From Psychroserpens luteolus (GTDB lineage Bacteria; Bacteroidota; Bacteroidia; Flavobacteriales; Flavobacteriaceae), in the NCBI RefSeq assembly GCF_021032705.1, contig NZ_JAHVXI010000004.1, positions 1-64,000 of the forward strand: DNA of 64,000 nt, in the 5' to 3' direction. Under the pieces are notes generated by a model. It did not search any database. It was not told where the DNA came from and saw only the letters and a list, made by a program, of their open reading frames with translations. Shown in pieces: positions 57,892-63,173 of the stretch. The position numbers and the translations under genes are program-made. Each line of letters begins with the position of its first letter. Position 1 is the first letter of the stretch.

Positions 57892-58281
57892 ATGATGTGG
57901 AAATACCTACTCGCTTGGATTCCTATGGTGTTTATCGCTATTTTAAACGGATTGTTTCGTGAGAAAGTTTTAGCAAATCGTTTTAAAGAATTGAGTGCAC
58001 ATCAATTATCTACAGTGACGCTCATTGTTTTGTTTGGATTATACATTTGGATCCTCCTGCGCTTTTTAAAACTTGAATCTGCTAAAGACGCCTTACAATT
58101 AGGTGTGTTTTGGTTAGGTTGTACCGTTGTTTTTGAGTTTCTATTTGGACACTATATTGCAGGTCATTCTTGGAGCAAATTATTTAACGATTATAATATT
58201 CTCGAAGGACGCGTATGGATATTTGTTCTTATTTGGACAATGATAGGGCCTTATGTGGTTTATAGGATGCAGGGTTGGTAG
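57892..58281 (+). CDS. Hypothetical small membrane protein
   Basis: A 129-aa protein with four hydrophobic helices (about 1-20, 42-62, 75-95, 105-124). Conserved-looking motifs include GLFREKVL and LFGHYIAGHSW. No soluble domain and no recognised family. It stands alone between genes on the other strand. Confidence 0.75.
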   Translation: MMWKYLLAWIPMVFIAILNGLFREKVLANRFKELSAHQLSTVTLIVLFGLYIWILLRFLKLESAKDALQLGVFWLGCTVVFEFLFGHYIAGHSWSKLFNDYNILEGRVWIFVLIWTMIGPYVVYRMQGW

Positions 58282-58306
58282 TTGGTTATACGATTTGTGA
58301 TAAACG

Positions 58307-58858
58307 TTATTTTAAGTCTATAGGAGGAAGTGGAGGAGGCGGAGGAACAAAGTCAAATTTTTCATAAACTTTTTTAGTTTCTGAGAGATAGTCCTTGCAT
58401 TGGGACAACCACCAAGTGTTTATGTCTTCTGAAGTTGTATAAACTTTTGAATCATAAAAACTCACCACTGTACTTTCAGGATTTATGTTTACCGTTGATT
58501 TAATCACAAAATAATAGTTACCTCGATTAAAGTCTTCATTCTCTTTTTTTATAATTTCAAAACAGATGATAACCATTTTAAAGGTATTCGAACGTTCGGT
58601 TAAGTAGAAATGAGGTAGCGTATATATAGATGTATTTGGTATTGCATTTTTAATTTGCGCTTTCAATGTTTCACTTTCTGAGTCGCTTAGTTTTAAATCA
58701 TCAACATTGGATTTTTCAATATGCTTAATTATAGAAAACGTAGCTCCTGTTACAGTCTTGAAATCTTCCTTCGTTATAGTTTGACCATAGCTATGGATTG
58801 TTGTCAATAGGCATACTATTAAAGTGCTCGTTTTTATAAGTTTTATCAAGGTGATCAT
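58307..58858 (-). CDS. Hypothetical secreted protein with Pro-rich tail
   Basis: A 183-aa protein with a signal peptide (STLIVCLLTTIHSYGQ) and a mixed alpha/beta body. The last residues are a proline run (FVPPPPPLPPIDLK). No family recognised. It ends the ordinary genes just before the cassette-like unit. Confidence 0.7.
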   Translation of the reverse strand: MITLIKLIKTSTLIVCLLTTIHSYGQTITKEDFKTVTGATFSIIKHIEKSNVDDLKLSDSESETLKAQIKNAIPNTSIYTLPHFYLTERSNTFKMVIICFEIIKKENEDFNRGNYYFVIKSTVNINPESTVVSFYDSKVYTTSEDINTWWLSQCKDYLSETKKVYEKFDFVPPPPPLPPIDLK

Positions 58859-58917
58859 GTATGGCTTGTGACGAAGTTAGTGAAAGGAAATGAATCGGAG
58901 GAAAATTTGTAGGGTTT

Positions 58918-58991
58918 TGCTAACGCCAGCTCGCTTTGCTCGTATCCGAGCACACAAAGTAAACAATGGGTTATACACGTTGTTAGGTGTA
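58918..58991 (-). other. attC-like recombination site at the 3' end of the cassette
   Basis: On the minus strand: ACCTAAC (fits RYYYAAC), a folded middle with TGCTCG-GATA-CGAGCA extended by CTTT / AAAG across an unpaired GTG, and a closing GTTAG (core of GTTRRRY, with the last bases off consensus). Total about 74 nt, within the known attC range. The inner L boxes expected in attC are not clear. It directly follows the stop of the 291-aa gene, the usual place for attC. Confidence 0.5.
58982..58991 (+). repeat. Terminal inverted copy, left (GTTAGGTGTA)
   Basis: GTTAGGTGTA, exact reverse complement of TACACCTAAC at 60232-60241. It lies 9 bp beyond the end of the 291-aa gene. On the minus strand it contains the R''-like box of the attC-like site. 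Confidence 0.9.
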
Positions 58992-59000
58992 GTTTAAGAA

Positions 59001-59876
59001 CTAACGAATACTTTTAAATGATACATCATTGAGCCAATCTTTTAAAAAACCGTTAAAAATCTTCTCTTTTAATAATACTAAAAAAATATCCTTCCAAGCC
59101 TCAATCGAATTAGTATCAAATGGAATTCTTGAGCCATCAGGTTGGGTAGTAACTCTTGATTGAAATTCTAACGTAACATCTATGGTAGACCAATTTTGAT
59201 TAGATGGAGCCATAATATCTAACCATGTTAGCCATATGATATTAGATATGTTCTGTTTTCCAGATACTTTTATGTCCGTCCTGCCTCTTGAATCGAAGCC
59301 AACTTTACTTATTGGGCTAGATTTACTTCCAATTGCTGGAATAATTCTTTCCATAAGTTCATAATTTGGAATTTGCTTTCTTTGTGTTTTATTTGTTGGT
59401 TTAAAATTTTCTAATTGAAACTGAAAATTATAATGACAACTATAAGGAATAAAAATAATATTACTTGCTAATCCTTCAATATAAGTAGAGACTTGTCTAT
59501 ATAAATTGACAAAAAAATCAAAAAATTTATCAACAGTCTTAAGAAAATTATTCAAATTTGAACCAGACCTCTGAAATCCATAATAATTTTTACCAATTTC
59601 TAATTGAAATCCAAAAATATCATCTGAATAATTAATTTTAATATTATTCTCTAAATCAACTTTAACATCATCAAAATTAAAGAGTTTCTCCTCCTTGAGT
59701 TTGGTAATTATCTCCGATATACATAAATCTGCAATTGTACTTTTCACAGATTGTTCAGATAACGATGATATCTCTGTAAAACGTATATAGTAACTAAATG
59801 AAGAAATATCAGTTATATCATCAATCATTAAGTTACCTTCATTAAACTTTTCAAAAACGTTTACTTTATTTTCCAT
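59001..59876 (-). CDS. Cassette gene 2: hypothetical protein, 291 aa
   Basis: A 291-aa soluble protein with no signal peptide or membrane helix and no family I can name. It has alternating helix and strand character, several aromatic-rich stretches (NYYGFQRSG, FFDFFVNLYRQV, CHYNFQFQLENF) and an ending LKEKIFNGFLKDWLNDV. The overall order, with a strand-rich middle and a closing helix, is loosely like uncharacterised sporadic families linked to defence or phage, but this is not a match. Start ATG follows the stop of the membrane/coil gene without a gap (TAAATG), so the two are translated together. Confidence 0.75.
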   Translation of the reverse strand: MENKVNVFEKFNEGNLMIDDITDISSFSYYIRFTEISSLSEQSVKSTIADLCISEIITKLKEEKLFNFDDVKVDLENNIKINYSDDIFGFQLEIGKNYYGFQRSGSNLNNFLKTVDKFFDFFVNLYRQVSTYIEGLASNIIFIPYSCHYNFQFQLENFKPTNKTQRKQIPNYELMERIIPAIGSKSSPISKVGFDSRGRTDIKVSGKQNISNIIWLTWLDIMAPSNQNWSTIDVTLEFQSRVTTQPDGSRIPFDTNSIEAWKDIFLVLLKEKIFNGFLKDWLNDVSFKSIR

Positions 59877-60197
59877 TTATATTTCCTTTAAATGATTAGT
59901 TAATACATCAGTTAGTTCTTTTATCTCTTCTGCTAAACTATCAATTTTTTTTTGATCTTCAATTCCCTTACTTCTATCAAGTACCTTTAACTGATTTTGT
60001 TTATTTTCGACAATTGATGTCAACATTTGTATTTTTAAACTAAGAATAGAATTTGTTAGTTGTGAATTAGAATTTATGATAGATTTTTGATTTTGTTTAT
60101 TTGCCTTATTTTGAATTAATAAAGTAATGAACATAGCCAAAAACATTAAAAAATTGACTATTAATAAACCTATATTAATTTTTTCTGCAGTTGTCAT
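59877..60197 (-). CDS. Cassette gene 1: membrane-anchored coiled-coil protein
   Basis: A 106-aa protein: N-terminal membrane helix (about 8-27, IGLLIVNFLMFLAMFITLLI), then a polar helix likely to form a coiled coil (SILSLKIQMLTSIVENKQNQL, KKIDSLAEEIKELTDVL). The sort of small membrane anchor that often accompanies an effector. It is first in the cassette, 34 bp after the terminal repeat, and abuts the 291-aa gene. Confidence 0.75.
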   Translation of the reverse strand: MTTAEKINIGLLIVNFLMFLAMFITLLIQNKANKQNQKSIINSNSQLTNSILSLKIQMLTSIVENKQNQLKVLDRSKGIEDQKKIDSLAEEIKELTDVLTNHLKEI

Positions 60198-60231
60198 ATT
60201 ATACTATTTAAATTATTTTCTTTTCAACAAT

Positions 60232-60241
60232 TACACCTAAC
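60232..60241 (+). repeat. Terminal inverted copy, right (TACACCTAAC)
   Basis: TACACCTAAC, exact reverse complement of 58982-58991. On the minus strand it reads GTTAGGTGTA and contains GTTAGGT, a full match to the integron core site GTTRRRY. Confidence 0.9.
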
Positions 60242-60261
60242 TAGTTATATGAAGACAAATG

Positions 60262-60298
60262 TTCCTGTTTTTGGGAAGTATATTACCAAAAACAGGAA
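60262..60298. terminator. Strong hairpin just outside the cassette
   Basis: Perfect 13-bp stem TTCCTGTTTTTGG / CCAAAAACAGGAA with an 11-nt loop. The T-run is inside the stem, so it is only a possible terminator; it may instead belong to a folded recombination site. Confidence 0.5.
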
Positions 60299-60400
60299 TT
60301 AAGTTCCATTTTATAGCTTATAAAGCTATAACAATATCCAATACCATGTATACGTAGTTCTACGTATTTTTTGGATAAAAAGAAGTTTATTGGTTAGAGT

Positions 60401-60490
60401 TTACACTGCTAAATTATCAACTTGGGTATTCATCTCATTACGGAAAGCCGTATCCAAGACGAGATTTTTGATTTTAGCTTGGGTAAGAAT
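60401..60490 (-). pseudogene. Short coding remnant
   Basis: The minus strand reads ILTQAKIKNLVLDTAFRNEM followed by NTQVDNLAV and a stop. Upstream the frame soon meets a stop with no good start. It looks like the last 29 residues of a lost gene. The parent family is not recognised. Confidence 0.3.
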
Positions 60491-60653
60491 AAAAAAACAA
60501 ATACATCATGTTTGTGGTTTTTGGATGTGTTAAAAGAATGTCATTATGTATAACAAATTACACGTGTTTGAACCTACTGTTAAACTTCAAGGTCTCATCT
60601 TAGCCTTCGTAAATATTTCCTTATTATTGTAGGACTTAACTTATAAACGTGAT

Positions 60654-63173
60654 ATGAAGCACCTCTACTTATTTTTAATTACATTTTTTTTACTGTCTAC
60701 AGCACAAGCCCAAATTATTTCTTTTCCCGATGTCAATTTCGAGAATGCCTTGATGAATACTAACTGTATAGATATTGACGACGATGGGTTGGGAGATATA
60801 GATGCAGATGCTAATGACGATGGGTATATTACAGTAAGTGAAATAGCAATGGTTACCAATTTATACATCAATAATCAAAATATTTCGAATCTAAGCGGAA
60901 TTGAAAATTTCAGTAGTCTGGAAATCTTAAAATGTGCTTTTAATGACATACCCAATGCAGATTTGAGTGCATTAACCAATTTAAAAACCTTGGATATGGC
61001 ACTTAATGATCTTACAGCTATTGATGTAAATAGCCTCGCTAATATTGAGATTTTACGACTTGATAATAATGATCTAACAAACCTAGATATAAGCTTAAAT
61101 CCTAATTTGATTAACCTGTCTGTTGGAAACAATGCATTGACCACATTAAATACTAGTAATAATTTTAATTTAATGGAGTTGGCCTGTAATGGTAATGGCA
61201 TAGCGACGCTAGATATTAGTAATAATAGTAATCTAACCCGTTTGATTTGTTCGGGAAACCAATTACAAGTGCTTGATCTAATGTCTAATCCTAATTTAGA
61301 GTATATATCATGTCGATCTAATGATTTATCAAGTTTAGATATTAGCTTAAATCCAAGTATCACTGTTTTAGATTGTGTTAATAATAATATTAGTAGCTTG
61401 AACTTAGGAACAAATACTTCATTTATAAATCTCTCCATTGGAGAAAATCCATTGCCTGTCATAGATCTAAGTTGGTTTCTTGATTTGGAAACTATTGATA
61501 TTTTTGATCTTCATTATCCAGATACTGATTTTTCCATCTTTCCAAACCTTAGAAATCTTTATGCAAGTGGAAGCGATTTTACAACGCTTGATTTAAGTCA
61601 GAATCAAAATCTGTCTCAAATGTTTGTGAGTAATAGTCTCTTGCTGGAAACGATAAACATTAAAAACGGGACAGCTTTAGATGGGATCTCAGCATTTAAT
61701 GTGCCAAGCCTTAATTATGTTTGTATTGATAATATTTCTAGCGAGCTATGGGTTCAAAATGTATTTGCGAATTCGAGTGTTCAAGTCAATTCATACTGTG
61801 ATTTTGATTATGGAGGCTCATTTTTTGAATTAAATGGTACAATCACTTTTGATGCTGATAATAATGGTTGTGATGCTCAGGATATTAATACTGTAAATTT
61901 AAAATTACAGGTTATTAATGATACCTACACTGAAACGGCAATAACATCAAGCTCTGAGAATTATACCTTACAACTGTTAGAGGGAAACAGTACGATAACA
62001 GCTAGTTTAGAAAACCCAAACTATTTTATAGTTCAACCCTCCAGTGTTAGTCTGCAATTCCCTCAAGATGTTAGTCCGTTTTCTCAGGATTTTTGCATCG
62101 TACCAAATGGGATTCAAAACGATCTGGAAATAATAATAACGCCTACCAGTATTACTCAAGCTGGATTTAATGCAAGTTACAGACTATTTTATAGAAACAA
62201 AGGGAACACACAAGCCTCAGGAAATTTAAGCTTTGTCTTTGATGACAATATCATGGATTTTCAGTCATCTTCGTTGGCACCAACTGTTACAGCAGGAAAC
62301 CTTTCATGGACATTCAATAATCTGTTGCCTTTTGAAACGCGGTTTATTGATTTAGAATTTTCGCTAAACGCAACTACTGATCCAGATTTTCCACTATCAA
62401 ATGGAGATATTGTGAACACAGAAGCAATGATAACGACAACACCTGCTGATGTTTTGCCTTCGGATAATACGTTTATGCTTGATCAGACTATCGTTAATTC
62501 ATTTGATCCAAACGACAAAACCTGTCTGGAAGGTGAGACCATAAGAGAAGCTATGGTAGGAGAGTATCTTCACTATTTAATTCGCTTTGAAAATATAGGT
62601 ACTGCAAACGCTATAAACGTTGTTATAAAAGACAATATTGATATTAGTAAATTTGATATCAATTCTCTAATTCCGTTGCATGCAAGTCATGATTTTATAA
62701 CTAGAATTCGAAATACAAATGAAGTCGAATTTATATTTGAAAATATCAACTTGCCATTTGATGATGCTAATAACGATGGTTTTGTAGTGTTTAAAATAAA
62801 AACCTTAGAGACGTTGATGGTAGGTGATACGTTTAGTAATGATGCCGAAATTTTCTTCGATTTTAACTTTCCTATTGTAACCAATGATTATCAAACTACG
62901 GTCGAAGACAATTTGTCTGTTAATGAGTTTGAATTGGGTTCGACCATACAAGTGTATCCTAATCCGGTTCAAGATCAATTATACATCACTTCTGAAGTGG
63001 TACTTAACAAGACTACTATATATGATGTGAATGGTCGCGTATTACAACACATCATTTTTATTGGAAATGAGTTAGAACGTACTATAGATGTTGCGGATTT
63101 ATCAAAAGGTATTTATTTTGTAAAGCTTTCTTCGGAAAATGGAAGTACAACGCAAAAGATTATAAAGCAATAA
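60654..63173 (+). CDS. Secreted leucine-rich-repeat protein with type IX sorting domain
   Basis: An 839-aa exported protein. Signal peptide (LYLFLITFFLLSTAQAQ), an Asp-rich, EF-hand- or dockerin-like stretch (about 41-60, DIDDDGLGDIDADANDDGY), then about 15 leucine-rich repeats (about 68-360) of the bacterial NxxLxxLDLSxNxx type. After that comes a beta-sandwich region with the conserved FDPNDKTCLEG block (about 615-625) seen in many Bacteroidota surface proteins. The last 75 residues are a type A sorting domain (IQVYPNPVQDQLYITS ... LSKGIYFVKL). Probable adhesin or binding protein exported by the type IX system. Confidence 0.93.
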   Translation: MKHLYLFLITFFLLSTAQAQIISFPDVNFENALMNTNCIDIDDDGLGDIDADANDDGYITVSEIAMVTNLYINNQNISNLSGIENFSSLEILKCAFNDIPNADLSALTNLKTLDMALNDLTAIDVNSLANIEILRLDNNDLTNLDISLNPNLINLSVGNNALTTLNTSNNFNLMELACNGNGIATLDISNNSNLTRLICSGNQLQVLDLMSNPNLEYISCRSNDLSSLDISLNPSITVLDCVNNNISSLNLGTNTSFINLSIGENPLPVIDLSWFLDLETIDIFDLHYPDTDFSIFPNLRNLYASGSDFTTLDLSQNQNLSQMFVSNSLLLETINIKNGTALDGISAFNVPSLNYVCIDNISSELWVQNVFANSSVQVNSYCDFDYGGSFFELNGTITFDADNNGCDAQDINTVNLKLQVINDTYTETAITSSSENYTLQLLEGNSTITASLENPNYFIVQPSSVSLQFPQDVSPFSQDFCIVPNGIQNDLEIIITPTSITQAGFNASYRLFYRNKGNTQASGNLSFVFDDNIMDFQSSSLAPTVTAGNLSWTFNNLLPFETRFIDLEFSLNATTDPDFPLSNGDIVNTEAMITTTPADVLPSDNTFMLDQTIVNSFDPNDKTCLEGETIREAMVGEYLHYLIRFENIGTANAINVVIKDNIDISKFDINSLIPLHASHDFITRIRNTNEVEFIFENINLPFDDANNDGFVVFKIKTLETLMVGDTFSNDAEIFFDFNFPIVTNDYQTTVEDNLSVNEFELGSTIQVYPNPVQDQLYITSEVVLNKTTIYDVNGRVLQHIIFIGNELERTIDVADLSKGIYFVKLSSENGSTTQKIIKQ

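What the first reader, a model, noticed from the sequence alone, without database searches (positions are those of the whole stretch)
58918..60241. Integron-cassette-like unit in a flavobacterial chromosome, without an integrase in view
Two genes on the minus strand are framed by GTTAGGTGTA at the start and TACACCTAAC at the end, exact reverse complements over 10 bp. The start holds GTTAGGT, a full match to the integron core GTTRRRY. The end holds ACCTAAC, a full match to RYYYAAC, and leads into a 74-nt foldable site ending GTTAG. In integrons, the R'' box at the 3' end of a cassette is complementary to the TTRRRY at its own 5' end, because both come from one attC on the circular form; that is exactly what is seen. 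The close fit of gene ends to unit ends also matches cassettes. Known knowledge: integron attC architecture. Inference: that this unit moves or once moved.
Basis: partly seen in the sequence, partly recalled or inferred. Interest (0 to 1): 0.8.

Follow-up and report, generated by a model that had tools for sequence, protein, structure and literature searches.

The report
Flavobacterial gene cassettes without classical integrase
The two genes sit in a stray mobile gene cassette belonging to a widespread integron-like gene-collecting system of flavobacteria whose integrase differs from that of classical integrons, and I did not find this system described in the papers I could search.

Summary
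The unit is real and cassette-like. Its ends obey a rule, GTT-N7-A at the start and C-(complement of N7)-AAC at the end, whose exact form occurs once in 64 kb. Related sites form arrays on three other contigs, one beginning just past a tyrosine integrase. Of 60 integrase neighbourhoods from other Flavobacteriaceae genomes, 56 hold such sites. In 179 consecutive cassettes the two 7-mers match at 5.8 of 7 positions, against 2.5 shuffled. Site arms covary; the bottom strand folds better in 174 of 186 sites. An attI-like palindrome usually precedes the first cassette. A close relative has other genes at the same spot beside secA, with the junction at GTT. It works like an integron but fails two defining tests: all 61 array integrases lack the IntI-specific insert, and canonical core sequences are rare. 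Recombination is inferred, not shown.

The parts
58848..60241 (-). solitary gene cassette, from the GTT of its 5' end to the 3' end of its own attC-like site
   Evidence: end rule unique in window; site homology; junction against G217
60229..60241 (-). cassette 5' end GTT-AGGTGTA-ATT; crossover point inferred at GTT
   Evidence: flank shared with L097 ends here
59877..60197 (-). cassette ORF 1, 106 aa, unknown, N-terminal membrane-like stretch by eye
   Evidence: no family over cut-off in Pfam, none in PADLOC or NCBIfam
59001..59876 (-). cassette ORF 2, 291 aa, unknown; found only in this genome among 397 searched
58982..58994 (-). cassette 3' end AAC-TACACCT-AAC (R''-like arm), 7 of 7 complementary to the 5' end, with the family's fixed A/C mismatch at the next position
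58848..58985 (-). attC-like site, degenerate at its 3' end (ATCACCTT instead of AACACGTT)
   Evidence: model R1 25.6 bits, E 0.023 in 228 kb, only hit in the window at E up to 1; BLAST of 82 nt to C22:503589 E 1.3e-11
58307..58858 (-). gene after the cassette; its start codon lies in the degenerate end of the site; not found at this locus in G217
60239..60381 (-). left flank shared with close relative G217 up to GTT (attG-like insertion point beside secA)

Best explanation
The unit is a solitary gene cassette of an integron-like system that is common in Flavobacteriaceae. Shown by sequence: a tyrosine integrase without the IntI-specific insert, an attI-like palindrome and first cassette start about 30-116 nt after its stop codon, and a co-oriented array of cassettes, mostly one short gene plus a hairpin site of about 125 nt. 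Inferred: the integrase acts on the folded bottom strand of the site, cuts at GTT, releases a circle in which the cassette-specific N7 arms pair (completing the hairpin), and re-inserts it at attI, at another site, or now and then at a genomic GTT. The window unit looks like such an off-array insertion beside secA whose site has since decayed.
For: End rule: 179 consecutive cassettes match at 5.80 of 7 positions, 105 of 179 at all 7, shuffled 2.50 (sd 0.11); position 8 matches in none. Site arms: 228 cells with double changes against 66 shuffled, slid controls 38-60, three G-U cells in all. Bottom strand more stable in 174 of 186 sites; control stretches go the other way, 63 of 186; the conserved top-strand A.C mismatches become G.T wobbles on the bottom. 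All 247 sites in 20 close-integrase loci are downstream and co-oriented; 36 of 40 second-tier loci have sites. Start of the first cassette 30-116 nt after the integrase in 19 of 21 loci, behind a palindrome with mean arm 8.9 against 3.2 in simple shuffles. The same cassette beside unrelated neighbours in four pairs, two of them between genera, with exact ends in three. 19 IntI neighbourhoods: no such site. Close relative with other genes from the same GTT on.
Against: No recombination was observed. The window site is degenerate: it does not reach E 0.1 in the whole-genome search, the structural scan misses it, and its fold is hardly better than shuffled (z -1.42 bottom, -0.13 top). 74 of 98 genomes without an integrase hit at E 1e-60 still have sites, so integrase and sites are often apart or the integrase is more divergent than my search. 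In 5 of 36 second-tier loci with sites the array leaves from the other side of the integrase. In G217 the first unit at the secA spot does not obey the end rule. Of 20 secA neighbourhoods of the genus 6 hold a site. The IntI control comes from other families of the phylum, so taxonomy could explain part of it.
Confidence: 0.88

Rival explanations
1. Classical integron remnant: a normal attC cassette (SALIN/CALIN) left by an IntI integron that was lost or sits elsewhere.
For: Architecture of cassette ends, hairpin site and array agrees. True IntI occur in the phylum, 57 of 198 genomes, and some of those genomes also carry R1 sites elsewhere.
Against: No IntI over cut-off in this genome; none of the 57 IntI-positive genomes belongs to this family. 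RYYYAAC in 10 of 209 and GTTRRRY in 7 of 209 sites. No R1 site in 19 IntI neighbourhoods. All 61 array integrases lack the 42-residue insert that all 20 IntI have.
Confidence: 0.06
2. Transposon or MITE-like dispersed hairpin repeat that happens to sit between genes; arrays are chance accumulations.
For: Some sites are solitary (C11:616994, C22:67304, window).
Against: Site and neighbouring gene move together; N7 links each site to the far end of its own cassette; every site found in 20 loci is on one strand; no transposase in the unit.
Confidence: 0.02
3. Sites are transcription terminators or structured RNA elements, conserved as RNA.
For: Hairpins lie at gene ends; promoter-like motif in some loops.
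Against: Arms change by full Watson-Crick replacement with almost no G-U; the antisense strand is the better folder; no Rfam family reached its gathering score on window 58000-61000.
Confidence: 0.02
4. The arrays are mobilised by host XerC/XerD rather than by the adjacent integrase.
For: XerCD can use many sites (general knowledge).
Against: The array-adjacent integrases separate from this genome's XerC/XerD in the tree, and sites adjoin the integrase in 56 of 60 loci.
Confidence: 0.02

Closest known systems
Integrons (IntI, attI, attC; sedentary chromosomal integrons and CALIN)
   Same: integrase next to attI-like site, co-oriented mostly one-gene cassettes, imperfect hairpin site with R and L arms and an unpaired spacer, bottom-strand bias, complementary cassette ends, solitary off-array cassettes
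   Different: integrase lacks the IntI-specific insert; R core is not RYYYAAC/GTTRRRY but GTT plus a cassette-specific 7-mer with a fixed A.C mismatch; attI is a short palindrome; integrase usually reads toward the array
XerA-type tyrosine recombinases (best PDB sequence match 5hxy; NCBIfam NF040815)
   Same: catalytic core without insert, catalytic residues conserved
   Different: extra N-terminal domain of about 100 residues in the close group; gene sits at cassette arrays
xerD/TnpF next to tet(X3) in a plasmid (FJ012881)
   Same: 55.6% identical (query residues 143-375) relative of this integrase, directly upstream of a unit with a similar end pattern
   Different: N-terminally shortened, alone with one gene, no site recognised by R1

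Membership tests
Integron (IntI-based) | integrase with the IntI-specific additional domain (named as defining in PMC9668308, passage seen) | tested here: not met
   Alignment distance from catalytic Arg to HxxR: 89-90 residues in 61 of 61 array integrases, 131 in 20 of 20 IntI; TIGR02249 under cut-off
Integron (IntI-based) | attC core sequences RYYYAAC and GTTRRRY (motifs recalled) | tested here: not met
   10 of 209 and 7 of 209 sites
Integron (IntI-based) | site is a hairpin conserved by structure, bottom strand favoured | tested here: met
   (computed, not assayed)
Integron (IntI-based) | attI next to the integrase gene | tested here: met
   first cassette start close behind the integrase in 19 of 21 loci, perfect palindrome arms of 11 or more in 13 of these 19; function not tested
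Integron (IntI-based) | tandem, co-oriented, mostly one-gene cassettes | tested here: met
   longest ORF on the array strand in 118 of 126 cassettes with an ORF (9 of 135 had none), median cassette 614 bp
Integron (IntI-based) | integrase-dependent excision and insertion | not testable with these tools
   needs the bench
Solitary cassette (SALIN-like) | single cassette with site away from an integrase, inserted at a genomic site | tested here: met
   only R1 hit in the window; junction at GTT shared with G217; integrase on another contig
Transposon/IS | transposase gene within terminal repeats | tested here: not met
   two unknown ORFs only

The most novel reading that the evidence does not exclude
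Flavobacteriaceae, and parts of the wider phylum, carry a second kind of integron built on integrase lineages without the IntI insert, with its own attI (a palindrome) and its own cassette sites (GTT-N7 arms, strand choice through A.C/G.T mismatches). Surveys that demand the IntI domain and canonical attC cores would miss it. The plasmid gene tet(X3) would be a cassette of this system.
Probability: 0.75. Interest if true: 0.93.

Novelty: new variant of a known kind. Interest (0 to 1): 0.87.

Why it matters
A large survey reports, within Bacteroidetes proper, one complete integron (Salinibacter; PMC9024848, passage seen), yet here 173 of 199 Flavobacteriaceae genomes carry cassette sites of this type. 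(In my sample of the wider phylum IntI is not rare, 57 of 198, but none in this family.) If right, a major gene-exchange platform of flavobacteria has been overlooked, because surveys may select integrases by the IntI domain (PMC2426708 states this selection, passage seen). It would show that the integron way of working does not need the IntI-specific insert, make strand choice testable in a new setting, and bear on the question posed in PMC7473080 (passage seen) whether the 'XerD' beside tet(X) takes part in its movement.

Tried and rejected
IntI in this genome: none over cut-off. Rfam on window 58000-61000: one chance-level match, none over gathering score. Exact site string in viral contigs: none; integrase in viral contigs and phages: none at the thresholds used. 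A first covariation count used a structure partly shifted by one column and scored low; the corrected one is, and both are told here. A quick regular-expression search for canonical attC in 8 IntI loci found none; the rule was too strict to mean anything. In one search my two motifs matched in only 30 of 61 array integrases and 13 of 20 IntI; one search repeats the measure on the alignment for all. Defence families for the window genes: none. Structure search of the model: tool switched off. Papers: ten searches found no description of this system; the library lacks most subscription journals and bioRxiv, so an existing description cannot be excluded. Selection: the 40 second-tier loci were chosen for room on the contig, but I had already seen that about nine of them lie near sites, so the choice was not blind; of 38 close-group hits 21 were fetched (own included), also by contig room. 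Shuffles keep base make-up only and not relatedness.

Full report
WHAT IS THERE. On the minus strand the unit begins GTT-AGGTGTA-ATT (60241-60229), holds two ORFs of 106 and 291 aa, and ends AAC-TACACCT-AAC (58994-58982), followed by AACGTGTAT.... A scan of the whole window on both strands for this end rule with all seven bases exact finds one unit, this one. The site that follows does not end at 58918. BLAST with 82 nt of it finds 26 places in the own genome at E up to 10, itself included, most of them on the plus strand of contigs C22, C52 and C32 in clusters; aligned with these, the window site runs on to 58848, where the usual AACACGTT is degraded to ATCACCTT. A covariance model of the family (R1, 81 sites, none from the window) has its single window hit at 58848-58985 minus, 25.6 bits, E 0.023 for 228 kb. 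That is weak. In the whole-genome search 31 sites reach E 0.1 (150 of 3926 candidates scored) and the window site is not among them; its own fold is near shuffled level. It is a decayed member.

ARRAYS AND THE END RULE. In the arrays each cassette starts GTT-N7-A(TT) and ends C-(complement of N7)-AAC, and N7 differs from cassette to cassette. In 18 own-genome cassettes 7.67 of 12 positions match, shuffled 4.54 (sd 0.40), reached in 0 of 20,000 shuffles. A structural scan of the fetched own-genome stretches plus 20 loci of relatives found 209 sites on the array strand and 0 on the other; it missed the window site and that at C22:67304. The 179 consecutive cassettes match at 5.80 of 7 positions, with 105 perfect, against 2.50 (sd 0.11) and 1.8 perfect when shuffled; position 8 matches in none of 179. 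The cassettes with 6 or 7 matches (135) have a median of 614 bp; 9 have no ORF of 60 aa, and in the other 126 the longest ORF is on the array strand in 118 and covers a median 93%.

THE SITE. In 81 aligned sites from 19 genomes (A1) the arms named from the sequence pair in 87.4% of cells; 228 cells have changes on both sides (shuffled 66.0; slid controls 38 to 60), the covariation score is 0.454 (shuffled 0.114), and three cells are G-U. The number of further pair types, 30, does not exceed the shuffles (29.4). Columns 19 and 135 are A and C in 80 of 81 rows each; 14 and 142 are A in 72 and C in 67. On the top strand these are mismatches, on the bottom strand G.T pairs. With DNA parameters the bottom strand is more stable in 174 of 186 sites (mean -18.6 against -16.1 kcal/mol), whereas equal-length stretches before the sites lean the other way (63 of 186); with the arms alone it is 135 of 186. 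Pairing the cassette's own two ends, as in an excised circle, makes the bottom-strand stem more stable than pairing with the next cassette in 138 of 160. These facts fit attC-like recombination of a folded bottom strand, but fold energies are predictions.

THE INTEGRASE. Contig C52 holds a 375-aa tyrosine recombinase at 129984-131111, co-oriented with the array that follows. It matches XerA and IntI4 structures by sequence; against IntI4 the alignment breaks between IntI residues 177 and 243. From catalytic Arg to HxxR there are 89-90 residues in 61 of 61 array integrases and 131 in 20 of 20 IntI; one second-tier row has Ser in place of the Arg. R235, K260, K263, H324, R327, H350 and Y359, catalytic by comparison with known recombinases (recalled), are invariant in 25. 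In a quick tree IntI is one side of a branch (SH-aLRT 100) and the close group another (99); how they join is not resolved. An AlphaFold2 model (pLDDT 81.5, pTM 0.49) gives an N-terminal domain of strands and helices before the usual two domains.

ASSOCIATION. In 199 Flavobacteriaceae genomes, own included, 34 have a hit of 400 bits or more to the integrase and 101 a hit at E 1e-60; 173 have sites at E 1e-5, at most 17 candidates being scored per genome. Sites occur in 99 of the 101 and in 74 of the other 98 (Fisher p 1e-6, from the lists). The 20 loci of the close group all have sites, 247 in all, all downstream and co-oriented. Of 40 second-tier loci 36 have sites: 31 downstream and co-oriented, 5 with the array leaving from the other side (L141, L143, L147, L150, L153); one stray site lies upstream in L135. 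The four without are L118, and L123, L128, L151, whose contigs end within 1.1 kb. Nineteen IntI neighbourhoods from other families of the phylum show none at E 0.5, though several of those genomes have R1 sites elsewhere. In a phylum sample 59 of 198 genomes have sites.

ATTI. In 19 of 21 loci the first cassette start, 6-7 of 7 against its own far end, lies 30-116 nt past the integrase stop (the stop of the 20 relatives was taken at one common place, so distances are approximate); in L077 and L090 it is farther off. Before it stands a palindrome: 13 of 19 have perfect arms of 11 or more ending 3-6 nt before GTT, the other 6 imperfect ones; the mean perfect arm is 8.9 against 3.2 in simple shuffles.

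MOBILITY. Six pairs among 179 units are the same cassette at two places. Four pairs have unrelated neighbours on both sides: L081 and L090 within one genome, L083/L091 and L083/L084 between genera; ends are exact in three, and in L083/L084 the alignment stops 99 nt before the end, inside the site. The other two pairs are one tandem duplication in L084. Beside secA, the close relative G217 (L097) shares the window's left flank at 86% up to GTT and then has another gene; similarity of the flank returns at window 58272. The window's cassette genes, the next gene and the LRR gene were not found in the 10 kb fetched there. G217 has two clear R1 sites of its own in this gap, but its first unit does not obey the end rule; its second does with one mismatch. 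Six of 20 genus members fetched (of 22) have sites near secA. Gene 59001-59876 was found in none of 396 other genomes; the 106-aa gene was sought only beside secA.

COMPARISON. It works like an integron; it is not filed as one, because the IntI-specific domain and the canonical cores were tested and not met. Statements on integrons come from passages of PMC8618304, PMC9024848, PMC9668308 and PMC2426708. No paper describing the system was found in the ten searches listed under Tried and rejected.

A LEAD ON TET(X3). A 55.6%-identical, shortened relative stands directly upstream of tet(X3) in plasmid FJ012881. Between them lie, by eye, a palindrome with a two-base centre and then GTT-ATGTGCC-ATT; after the gene comes AAC-GGCTACT-AAC. 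The two 7-mers agree in only 4 of 7, which about a quarter of shuffled pairs reach (from the distribution), and R1 sees no site. It is a lead, no more.

Noticed in passing
L178 6052-8098 (FJ012881): Shortened relative of the integrase directly upstream of tet(X3), with an attI-like palindrome by eye and cassette-like ends (N7 4 of 7). 47 of 58 matching plasmid records are Acinetobacter; only FJ012881 was looked at.
   Followed up: partly
L177 (Chryseobacterium plasmid NZ_CP041688), L200 (Rufibacter plasmid NZ_CP012644): Similar layout on plasmids outside Flavobacteriaceae: integrase followed by co-oriented R1 sites, 5 in L177, 2 in L200 plus a weak one on the other strand. L177 also has a group II intron among these genes.
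   Followed up: partly
loops of sites in L077-L096 and own arrays: Promoter-like motif TT[TCG]NCTANNTT[TA] in 68 of 203 site loops, 0 on the reverse strand, 1.8 when shuffled (not corrected for relatedness): sites may carry a promoter for the next cassette.
   Followed up: partly
L097 881-4507: At the same secA spot the close relative has a 1208-aa protein with leucine-rich repeats, a GTPase-like part and a ThsB-like TIR part, possibly a defence gene.
   Followed up: no
L141, L143, L147, L150, L153: Array on the other side of the integrase and divergent from it, as in class 1 integrons, but still without the IntI insert.
   Followed up: partly
G000 C22:490177 and C52:150257: Two sites are 211 nt long and share, by eye, an inserted element of about 85 nt in the loop.
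   Followed up: no
window 60654-63173: LRR protein with a Por secretion tail beside secA, not found at this place in G217.
   Followed up: no
fetched integrase loci: A number of array integrases lie near contig ends, as expected if repeated sites break assemblies.
   Followed up: no
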